Origin: Deltaproteobacteria bacterium
GTDB lineage: Bacteria > Myxococcota > Myxococcia > Myxococcales > JAHFDP01
Direction of reading: 5' to 3'
Assembly (NCBI GenBank): GCA_023248955.1
Contig: JAHFDP010000021.1
Coordinates: 1-51,660, forward strand
DNA length: 51,660 nt
A program made the position numbers and the translations under genes. This document shows, in pieces, positions 6,542 to 30,604 of this stretch. Each line of letters starts with the position of its first letter. Position 1 is the first letter of the stretch. Below the pieces are notes generated by a model that saw only the letters and a list, made by a program, of their open reading frames with translations, searched no databases and had not been told where the DNA came from.

Positions 6542-6621
6542 CTAAGCCGGAAATCCACAGTTACCGTGGAACCGAGGCGGCCCGCGATCGGCCGTCGCAG
6601 GTAACGGCAATTCCGGTTTAG
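6542..6621. repeat. 80-bp deletion derivative of a terminal-inverted-repeat element
   Basis: The left end (CTAAGCCGGAAATCCACAG) and the reverse complement of the right end (CTAAACCGGAATTGCCG) form imperfect inverted repeats. They match both ends of the full copy at 12378-12630, including the sub-terminal CGATCGGCCGTCGCAGGTAA. The ~170-bp interior is absent. It sits 19-98 bp upstream of the CsgG-like gene and may contribute to its promoter region. Confidence 0.7.
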
Positions 6622-12341: not shown

Positions 12342-12377
12342 GGGATAAGTCTACCCCAGGATCGCTCCGCGGCTGAT

Positions 12378-12630
12378 TTAACCGGAAAGCCACAGTTGCC
12401 GCGGAACCGAGACGGTCGAACGTGGGCCGGCTACGAGGCGCGGACGAGGAGCCCCCGGAAGCGCACTTTTCGGTGCGCTGAGGAGGCACCGGAGGAGCCC
12501 GCTATGTGATCGGGCGCATCCAGCGCCACCAATCGGGCCGGCCGCGCTTTCTGCATGCGCGGCAAGCACCGAAGTAGACGGCTCGCGATCGGCCGTCGCA
12601 GGTAACGGCAATTGTGGTTTTTCGGTTTAG
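12378..12630. mobile_element. Full-length 253-bp inverted-repeat element with a structured core
   Basis: The termini TTAACCGGAAAGCCACAG and (reverse complement) TAAACCGAAAAACCACAA form ~24-bp imperfect inverted repeats. The interior has three hairpins: 12461-12478 (GCGCAC/GTGCGC), 12513-12527 (GGCGC/GCGCC) and 12541-12563 (GCCGCGC/GCGCGGC). The interior aligns with that of 29675-29928, but the ends differ from it, while the ends match the 80-bp copy at 6542-6621. No transposase is encoded, so this is a MITE-like non-autonomous element. The flanks, 12342-12377 and 12631-12723, carry no gene. Confidence 0.75.
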
Positions 12631-12723
12631 TTTTCACCGGCCTTCGGCGGTCCCCGACGCCGGAAACGGGTTCGAGTTTCTTCTTAGGTGACCACTTCGC
12701 GTGTGCAAAAGACGCGAAAGGAC

Positions 12724-29674: not shown

Positions 29675-29928
29675 CTAGGGCGTGTCCTCAAATTCGCACG
29701 GGAGCCGGGACGAGTGAGCGTGGGCCGAGTGCGGGCGCGCGCACGAGGAGAACGCGAAGGCGCACTTTGCGGTGCGTCGAGCGGCCCCCACAGGAGCACG
29801 CAATCCGACCGGGCGCTTCCAGCGCCACCTTGCGGGCCGGTCGCGCTTCCAACATGCGCGGCAAGCACGCACGCAGGCGGGCCGCGATCGCTCGTCGTAG
29901 GTCGTGGGAATTTGAGGATACGCCCTAG
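29675..29928. mobile_element. 254-bp inverted-repeat element with structured core and different ends
   Basis: The termini CTAGGGCGTGTCCTCAAATT and (reverse complement) CTAGGGCGTATCCTCAAATT form ~25-bp inverted repeats; CTAG or TA may be a target duplication. The interior aligns with 12378-12630, including the same three hairpins: 29760-29777, 29812-29826 and 29840-29862, where changes sit in loops or become G-U pairs. The terminal repeats are unrelated to those of the 12378 copy. No protein is encoded. The element fills the gap between the second propeller gene and the second toxin-antitoxin locus. Confidence 0.78.
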
Positions 29929-29950: not shown

Positions 29951-29984
29951 CATGTCGAGCACATGCTTTCATGCTCGCCACATG
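29951..29984. promoter_or_regulatory. Inverted repeat upstream of the second toxin-antitoxin operon
   Basis: CATGTCGAGCACATG and ATGCTCGCCACATG form an imperfect inverted repeat around CTTTC just before the antitoxin start. TTGACA at 29947-29952 could be a -35. It is a likely binding site for the ribbon-helix-helix antitoxin. Confidence 0.45.
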
Positions 29985-29990
29985 TCGATC

Positions 29991-30215
29991 ATGATTCAGA
30001 TCCGAAATGTCCCCGCCCCGCTCCATCGCACGCTGAAGGTTCGAGCGACCGAGGCCGGCATGTCGCTCTCGGACTATCTCTTGCGCGAGATGGAACAAGT
30101 CGCGCGTCGCCCGACGATCCACGAGCTGCTCGCACGCATCCAGGCACGCGGCCAGCCGCGGGGCCGCATCGATTCCGTCGCGCTTATCCGCGCTGATCGC
30201 GAGTCGCGCCGGTGA
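29991..30215 (+). CDS. vapB: FitA/VapB-type antitoxin
   Basis: The protein has 74 residues: MIQIRNVPAPLHRTLKVRAT, then EAGMSLSDYLLREMEQVA and an Arg-rich C-terminus (RADRESRR). This is the classic FitA-like ribbon-helix-helix antitoxin of PIN toxins. The ATG at 29991 matches the family N-terminus; ATG at 29982 would add three residues. The stop overlaps the toxin's GTG (GTGA, 30212-30215). It probably represses its own operon through the inverted repeat just upstream. Confidence 0.88.
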   Translation: MIQIRNVPAPLHRTLKVRATEAGMSLSDYLLREMEQVARRPTIHELLARIQARGQPRGRIDSVALIRADRESRR

Positions 30216-30604
30216 TCGTGCTGGACGCCTCGGCGGCAGTCGATCTCTTGCTCAACCTGCCCCCGCACACCAAAGCGATCGCCCAGCGTGTTGCCAAAAC
30301 GCCGGCCATCGCCGCGCCGCATCTTCTCGACGCGGAAGTTGGCCAGGCACTGCGCCGGCTGGTGCACGCGGGCAAGATTGACGAAGCAACCGCGCTCGCG
30401 GCACTCGCGGATCTCGCCGACCTGCCAATCACCCGTTACGCCCATGGGCCACTCTTACCGGGCGCGCTGGCGCTCCGGAATAACGTAACCGTTTACGATG
30501 CGATCTATCTTGTCCTCGCCGAGGCTCTCGGCGCGACGCTGCTCACGTGCCATGGCGCACTGGAAAAAGTCCCCGGGCAGCGCGCCAAGGTTCACGTCCT
30601 CTAA
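30212..30604 (+). CDS. vapC: PIN-domain toxin (VapC/FitB type), fourth acidic residue replaced
   Basis: The protein has 130 residues from a GTG. Acidic positions visible are D5 (IVLDASAAVDLLL), a Glu in LLDAEVGQAL and an Asp in VYDAIYLVLAEAL. In the last conserved motif, usually T-x-D, this protein has TCHGALEKVPG, with His in place of Asp. The first three acidic residues are enough for metal binding in some PIN proteins, so activity is uncertain. It forms an operon with the FitA-like antitoxin. It is unrelated in detail to the vapC at 21718. Confidence 0.85.
   Translation: MIVLDASAAVDLLLNLPPHTKAIAQRVAKTPAIAAPHLLDAEVGQALRRLVHAGKIDEATALAALADLADLPITRYAHGPLLPGALALRNNVTVYDAIYLVLAEALGATLLTCHGALEKVPGQRAKVHVL

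What the first reader, a model, noticed from the sequence alone, without database searches (positions are those of the whole stretch)
12378..12630. MITE-like element whose core carries three conserved hairpins
The interiors of 12378-12630 and 29675-29928 align over ~200 bp, and both fold into the same three stems: GCGCAC/GTGCGC, GGCGC/GCGCC and GCCGCGC/GCGCGGC. Differences between copies fall in loops, or turn a pair into G-U: the last base of GTGCGC becomes T, and GCCGCGC becomes GTCGCGC. That is what selection on an RNA fold would leave. No transposase or protein is encoded. This could be a mobile non-coding RNA in Myxococcota.
Basis: partly seen in the sequence, partly recalled or inferred. 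Interest (0 to 1): 0.68.

Follow-up and report, generated by a model that had tools for sequence, protein, structure and literature searches.

The report
Modular MITE with optional hairpin modules
The two repeats are copies of a small, transposase-less jumping DNA that has spread about 45 times through this myxobacterium-like genome; its hairpins are real, but two of the three sit in an optional 69-base module that comes and goes, so it looks like a modular mobile repeat (like pneumococcal BOX) and not a free-standing three-stem RNA.

Summary
In detail: both copies, all three stems and both G-U changes are present, and stems differ less than the rest (2/36 vs 46/164 positions). The genome carries about 45 copies, 40 of 41 complete ones intergenic and mostly at gene 3' ends. 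The window's two copies belong to two families with different ends. Family 1 (12382-12625) has IS1380-type features: ends like those of a decayed IS1380 copy in the same genome, and 5-bp NTNAN target duplications (24/31 match at 4 or 5 of 5). Family 2 (29678-29925) has different ends and a TA target. Both share one core, into which palindromic modules X (57 bp), Y (63 bp, family 1 only) and Z (69 bp) are inserted or missing. Stems 2 and 3 lie in Z, which is absent from at least 12 copies, tandem in others, and occurs in diverged form in an unrelated repeat. Some compensatory changes exist, so hairpins are maintained, but G-U does not clearly outnumber A-C, so RNA is not favoured over DNA. Nothing similar was found elsewhere. 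Best reading: a BOX-like modular MITE, lineage-restricted.

The parts
12377..12381 (.). left target duplication of copy 1, TTTAA
   Evidence: NTNAN 5-mer; partner TTTAG at 12626-12630, 4 of 5 identical
12382..12625 (+). copy 1: family-1 (IS1380-type) MITE, form without X or Y and with one Z
   Evidence: 94-95% identical to its nearest copies
12382..12401 (+). left TIR, CCGGAAAGCCACAGTTGCCG
12606..12625 (-). right TIR
12626..12630 (.). right target duplication of copy 1, TTTAG
12460..12479 (+). hairpin 1 (7 bp), constant part of the core; present in 45 scored copies
12499..12567 (+). module Z (69 bp), optional; carries hairpins 2 and 3
   Evidence: exactly absent from 177-bp copies; three tandem units in C114, tandem units in C82
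12513..12527 (+). hairpin 2 (GGCGC/GCGCC) inside Z
12541..12563 (+). hairpin 3 (GCCGCGC/GCGCGGC) inside Z
12627..12687 (-). 62-bp repeat abutting the right end; 11 copies in the genome, 9 with a family-1 or IS1380-like end at the same junction (one degenerate)
29676..29677 (.). target dinucleotide TA, left of copy 2
29678..29925 (+). copy 2: family-2 MITE (TIR GGGCGTGTCCTCAAATT) with one Z
29926..29927 (.). target dinucleotide TA, right of copy 2
29760..29777 (+). hairpin 1 of copy 2 (closing G-U)
29798..29866 (+). module Z of copy 2 (69 bp), with hairpins 29812-29826 and 29840-29862
6547..6616 (+). third, core-deleted family-1 element in the window: both ends, 70 bp, no hairpin 1 and no modules

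Best explanation
Both sequences are non-autonomous miniature transposons (MITEs) built on one modular core. SHOWN: about 45 copies with TIRs; 5-bp NTNAN duplications for family 1 and TA for family 2; intergenic, mostly 3'-of-gene placement; interiors that differ by exact presence or absence of palindromic modules X (57 bp), Y (63 bp) and Z (69 bp, 0 to 3 copies). INFERRED: family 1 moves when an IS1380-family transposase acts in trans on its CCGGAAA..CCACAGTTGCCG ends; family 2 is moved by another transposase with a TA target (IS5/IS427-like is a guess). INFERRED: the core is shared between the families, and X and Z switch on and off in both, through recombination between copies and slippage across palindromes flanked by short direct repeats (AGC..AGC at Z). 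INFERRED: when a copy sits just after a stop codon it is co-transcribed and folds into strong hairpins that may affect mRNA 3'-end stability, as proposed for BOX, ERIC and Correia elements; it is a passenger, not a dedicated ncRNA gene.
For: Copies. Ends: of 31 family-1 elements 11 have identical 5-mers and 24 match at 4 or 5 of 5; 21 have an identical central 3-mer (permuted-flank null mean 2.3 for 5/5 with maximum 7, and 6.0 for the 3-mer with maximum 16). A decayed IS1380 gene in the same genome (NF033539, E=6e-25) ends in CCTGAAAACCTCAGTTGACCG, which aligns to the family-1 TIR above 2000 shuffles (score 26, shuffle maximum 19-20) and sits on the same 62-bp repeat. IS1380 copies in same-order genomes have 5-bp NTNAN duplications (15 of 18 exact); IS1247 (IS1380 family) is tabulated with 5-bp repeats and IS5/IS427 with 2 bp (PMC3281130). 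Modularity: length classes 177, 246, 303, 309, 366 and 505 bp correspond to base, +Z, +X+Z, +Y+Z, +X+Y+Z and +X+Y+3Z. X and Z are polymorphic in both families at the same junctions. Context: 40/41 intergenic; divergent gaps 3, convergent 10.
Against: No intact IS1380 transposase was found in this draft genome; only a fragment at a contig start, so the left end of that IS is unseen. No transposase was identified for family 2. Ten of 31 family-1 copies, mostly the Y-bearing ones, lack an identical 3-bp core of the duplication (possibly age, inter-copy recombination or mis-assembly). No empty orthologous site was found because no close relative is held. Gene calls are from a simple codon-usage caller. 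The 3'-end mRNA effect is untested.
Confidence: 0.8

Rival explanations
1. A functional mobile non-coding RNA: the three stems are one RNA fold kept by selection, carried on a MITE.
For: Stems vary less than the rest. Compensatory changes in hairpin 1 (2 pairs) and Z (3 pairs); covariation score and cells with double changes reached by 0 of 500 shuffles, and slid controls are far lower. In 21 of 28 scored family-1 copies the 3' end of a gene abuts the left end, so co-transcription is likely.
Against: Two of the three stems lie in Z, absent from at least 12 copies, tandem in others and present in diverged form in an unrelated repeat. Double changes amount to only a few independent events, and the tool warns that relatedness inflates the shuffle result. 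By hand count one-sided changes are about 6 G-U against 3 A-C, not significant, so no transcribed strand is favoured; one Z pair is unpaired (A-C) in half the distinct sequences. No Rfam match. RNA folding beats shuffles for one copy only.
Confidence: 0.1
2. DNA-level hairpins: X, Y and Z are independently spreading REP- or RPE-like palindromes, moved or amplified through single-stranded DNA hairpins during replication, which happen to accumulate in the MITE core; compensatory changes come from template switching within palindromes. (Compatible with the MITE reading; it concerns where the modules come from.)
For: X occurs outside the MITE as single and tandem units of 57 bp within long, coding-like open frames; Z-like units occur in elements bounded by two palindromes; tandem Z arrays; X, Y and Z are each a multiple of 3 in length; compensated stems also appear in X.
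Against: No dedicated transposase (Y1/RAYT) was searched for; module target duplications are at most 3 bp and ambiguous; Y was found only inside family 1.
Confidence: 0.35
3. Plain internal-deletion derivatives of one long ancestral transposon, modules being leftovers lost by deletion; no module movement.
For: Module-minus copies are precise deletions at short direct repeats (AGC..AGC at Z), as expected of palindrome deletion by slippage; core-deleted forms of 70 and about 36 bp exist.
Against: X units outside the MITE and Z-like units in another repeat imply some gain or transfer; tandem Z arrays need amplification.
Confidence: 0.3

Closest known systems
BOX elements of Streptococcus pneumoniae (PMC3049150)
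   Same: Modular MITE-like repeat with terminal inverted repeats, an internal unit absent or in several copies (boxB; here Z), hairpin-rich, intergenic, over-represented between convergent genes, proposed to be mobilised in trans by an IS with similar ends.
   Different: No sequence relation was tested or claimed; three different optional modules at three sites; two families with different ends and targets share the core; 5-bp NTNAN duplication in family 1; units of 57, 63 and 69 bp; GC-rich, Myxococcota-like host.
BrickBuilt MITE of Porphyromonas gingivalis (PMC4596501)
   Same: A tandemly repeated unit inside a MITE; 19 intergenic copies; limited host range.
   Different: 23-nt minisatellite unit, not hairpin modules of 57-69 bp; one element type.
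IS1380-family insertion sequences
   Same: TIR beginning CC, 5-bp NTNAN target duplication, TIR similar to an IS1380 remnant in the same genome.
   Different: No transposase inside; 70-505 bp instead of about 1.7 kb (IS1247: 1672 bp, PMC3281130).
Rickettsia palindromic elements (reviewed in PMC10969869)
   Same: Module X is palindromic, a multiple of 3 long, and occurs within long open frames as well as in the MITE.
   Different: 57 bp instead of about 150 bp; tandem units; different phylum; in-frame status judged from codon composition only.

Membership tests
MITE | short, multicopy, TIR-bounded | tested here: met
   41 complete elements, 36-505 bp as scored, with TIRs; 45 copies of hairpin 1
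MITE | target-site duplication | tested here: met
   family 1: 24/31 match at 4 or 5 of 5 bases, above permuted flanks; family 2: TA on both sides in 8 of 10
MITE | no transposase encoded | tested here: met
   no Pfam hit in four open frames at E<=1
IS1380-derived MITE (family 1) | ends shared with an IS1380-family element of the host | tested here: met
   C28 IS1380 remnant end aligns above 2000 shuffles; only one end of that IS is visible
IS1380-derived MITE (family 1) | same target duplication as IS1380 | tested here: met
   NTNAN 5-bp in same-order IS1380 copies (15/18 exact) and in family 1; 5 bp in PMC3281130
IS1380-derived MITE (family 1) | mobilised in trans by that transposase | not testable with these tools
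   needs a transposition assay
IS5/IS427-derived MITE (family 2) | 2-bp duplication and matching IS ends | tested here: inconclusive
   TA target fits 2 bp; PF01609 found only 3 places in the genome, and the two typed are IS1380 and ISAs1
BOX element | A-B(n)-C modular build with variable copy number of the inner unit | tested here: met
   Z at 0, 1 or 3 copies in complete elements; resemblance of build only
BOX element | boxA/boxB/boxC sequence | not tested
   BOX sequences were not compared; not claimed as a member
structured non-coding RNA family | match to a known RNA family | tested here: not met
   0 Rfam matches in the window at gathering threshold
structured non-coding RNA family | one fold conserved across members | tested here: not met
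   stems 2 and 3 absent with Z in at least 12 copies
structured non-coding RNA family | covariation beyond phylogeny | tested here: inconclusive
   beats shuffles, but few events and no tree-aware test
RPE-like palindromic element (module X) | in-frame insertion in protein-coding genes | tested here: inconclusive
   X lies within long open frames with coding-like GC3 in several loci; no orthologue without X was compared

The most novel reading that the evidence does not exclude
A selfish structured core has been adopted by at least two unrelated transposition systems (IS1380-type and TA-type) and serves as a landing platform for palindromic modules that are themselves mobile and also land in-frame in genes, with module and net insertion lengths kept at multiples of three so that the whole assembly is tolerated inside coding sequence.
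Probability: 0.15. Interest if true: 0.65.

Novelty: new variant of a known kind. Interest (0 to 1): 0.4.

Why it matters
It is a GC-rich analogue of pneumococcal BOX, with optional hairpin modules shared between MITE families that have different ends and targets, and one module that also sits within open frames. That offers a natural series of copies (with and without X, Y or Z) for asking how palindromic modules are gained and lost. It is also a caution: two copies with three shared stems and G-U changes look like an RNA under selection until the whole copy set shows that the stems are separable.

Tried and rejected
Rfam scan of the window: nothing. Exact-pattern scans for hairpin 1 in genome contigs and viral contigs: nothing (the own genome or a very near one may be left out there). 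Element in 99 relatives and in up to 195 phylum genomes: only short chance-level matches outside the own genome. Plasmids: none. Decayed transposase inside the element: none. Terminator or promoter: one weak terminator-like site, at chance level, no sigma-70-like promoter. Empty orthologous site through the neighbouring hpt gene: the nearest locus (L183, 69%) keeps a kinase gene about 1.1 kb downstream of hpt and holds no element, but is too diverged for an empty-site comparison. The PF01609 hits C71 and C95 were not pursued as sources (C95 is an ISAs1-type transposase). The 'left TNA' count printed for family 1 is void (a letter-case slip in my script) and is not used.

Full report
What was checked. 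The window copies are as described. The three stems, the shared 200-bp interior and both G-U changes are real. Stems differ at 2 of 36 positions and the rest of the core at 46 of 164. RNA folding of the cores beats shuffles for copy 1 (z=-2.5) but not for copy 2 (z=+0.3), and Rfam has no match in the window.

The copy set. Searching the own genome (G000, 3.83 Mb, 116 contigs) with each copy gave dozens of related places; 45 copies of hairpin 1 in family context were extracted, and 41 elements with both ends were catalogued. They fall into two families. Family 1 (window 12382-12625) has ends CCGGAAATCCACAGTTGCCG; family 2 (window 29678-29925) has ends GGGC[G/C]TGTCC..AAATT. The inner parts are homologous (75-78% over about 200 bp) while the outermost 25 bp or so are not alike. 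A further end type at C33:10794-11026 carries the same hairpin 1 (it is counted with family 2 in the catalogue).

Ends and targets. For family 1, the 5-mers outside CCGG..CCGG are identical in 11 of 31 elements and match at 4 or 5 of 5 bases in 24; most fit NTNAN. A permutation of flanks gives a mean of 2.3 identical pairs and a maximum of 7 in 5000 trials. IS1380 copies in genomes of the same order have 5-bp NTNAN duplications (15 of 18 exact), and IS1247 of the IS1380 family is listed with 5-bp repeats (PMC3281130). The own genome holds a decayed IS1380 gene (NF033539, E=6e-25; below that model's curated cut-off because it is a fragment) whose visible end aligns with the family-1 ends above all of 2000 shuffles and abuts the same 62-bp repeat as seven family-1 copies, the window's first copy among them. 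I therefore read family 1 as an IS1380-type MITE. Family 2 has TA on both sides in 8 of its 10 listed elements; its mobiliser is unknown.

Modularity. Family-1 lengths cluster at 177, 246, 303, 309, 366 and 505 bp. These are the base element with added modules: Z (69 bp), X (57 bp) and Y (63 bp), and three Z units in the 505-bp copy. X and Z vary at the same junctions in family 2 (178-179, 248, 305 bp). Hairpins 2 and 3 of the finding lie inside Z (window 12499-12567 and 29798-29866). Z is exactly absent from nine family-1 copies of 177-178 bp, from the C77:19790 copy and from two family-2 copies, and is tandemly repeated in C82 and C114. Z-like units sit in a third repeat bounded by two palindromes (L065-L069, L106). 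X occurs outside the two MITE families in several places, single or tandem at a 57-bp period, mostly within long open frames with coding-like third-position GC. So the 'three conserved hairpins' are one constant hairpin and two module hairpins.

Covariation. In 22 distinct Z sequences, 94.9% of cells pair; three pairs show changes on both sides, the covariation score is reached by 0 of 500 shuffles, and slid controls are far lower. In 15 distinct hairpin-1 sequences two pairs show double changes. This supports maintained hairpins. It does not identify RNA: the double changes are a handful of events in related sequences; one-sided changes number about six to G-U and three to A-C by my hand count, which is not significant; and one outer pair of hairpin 2 does not pair in half of the distinct Z sequences. 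Template switching within palindromes (general knowledge, not tested here) would give the same pattern.

Context. With a simple codon-usage gene caller, 40 of 41 complete elements are intergenic; scored gaps are 15 same-direction with the element, 8 opposite, 10 convergent and 3 divergent. Elements often start within 0-40 bp of a stop codon. This resembles BOX, which is over-represented between convergent genes (PMC3049150). Read-through transcription would make these hairpins part of mRNA 3' ends; an effect on mRNA stability is inference.

Frame compatibility. X, Y and Z are all multiples of three, and 25 of 31 family-1 elements plus the 5-bp duplication are too. One reverse frame is open in 33 of 40 elements. 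A 36-bp family-1 element lies inside a predicted gene, and a family-1 end lies in-frame within a predicted protein just after its signal-like N-terminus. Copies share descent, so this is suggestive only (three module lengths all divisible by three: 1 in 27 by chance).

Distribution. The element was not found in 99 relatives, in a phylum sample of up to 195 genomes, in an exact-pattern scan of about 85,000 species genomes, in IMG/VR or in PLSDB. The host's family is represented by this genome alone in the sets shown. Its Hpt is nearest to Deltaproteobacteria, Polyangiaceae, Anaeromyxobacter and Myxococcaceae records at 59-69% identity.

Caveats. The genome is a draft in which several contigs end inside these elements; mis-joins could explain why Y-bearing copies have poorer target duplications. 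Only one end of the IS1380 remnant is visible. The family-2 mobiliser is unknown.

Verdict. A real, lineage-restricted, modular MITE family: BOX-like in build, IS1380-type in one family's ends and targets. The hairpins are real and partly covarying, but they are separable module hairpins, not a three-stem RNA.

Noticed in passing
C86:21945-22113 (L079), C110:946 (L077), C105:6793 (L081), C2:4885 (L085), C45:10503 (L087): Module X (57-bp palindrome) sits within long coding-like open frames, singly or as tandem 57-bp units; in L087 a diverged part lies in a YggS-like reading frame and in L077 two units precede a prepilin-like motif. Looks like a Rickettsia-palindromic-element analogue.
   Followed up: partly
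window 12627-12687 and ten other places (L147-L157): A 62-bp repeat (CTAAGAAGAAACTCGAACCC..GAAAACTAA), tandem at 57 bp in C20, has a family-1 or IS1380-like end at the same junction in 9 of 11 copies: a preferred target or a companion module.
   Followed up: partly
L065-L069, L106: A third repeat family: a Z-like core bounded by two palindromes (CTGTGAGC..GCTCACAG and AGAGGTTGTGA..TCACAACCTCT, or variants), resembling hairpin-ended elements.
   Followed up: no
L082 (C33:10794-11026): A fourth end type (GAGCCTGTCTCGATATTGCCC) carries the same hairpin 1 and an X module.
   Followed up: no
L103 (C45:16808): A family-1 end lies in-frame after the signal-like N-terminus of a predicted protein (..SAGKPQLPLPTTAERGPAPS..).
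   Followed up: no
L159, L162-L179 (G121): A same-order genome carries at least 19 near-identical IS1380-family copies with 5-bp NTNAN target duplications.
   Followed up: partly
window 29952-30604: A FitA-like antitoxin and PIN-domain gene pair follows copy 2 directly.
   Followed up: no
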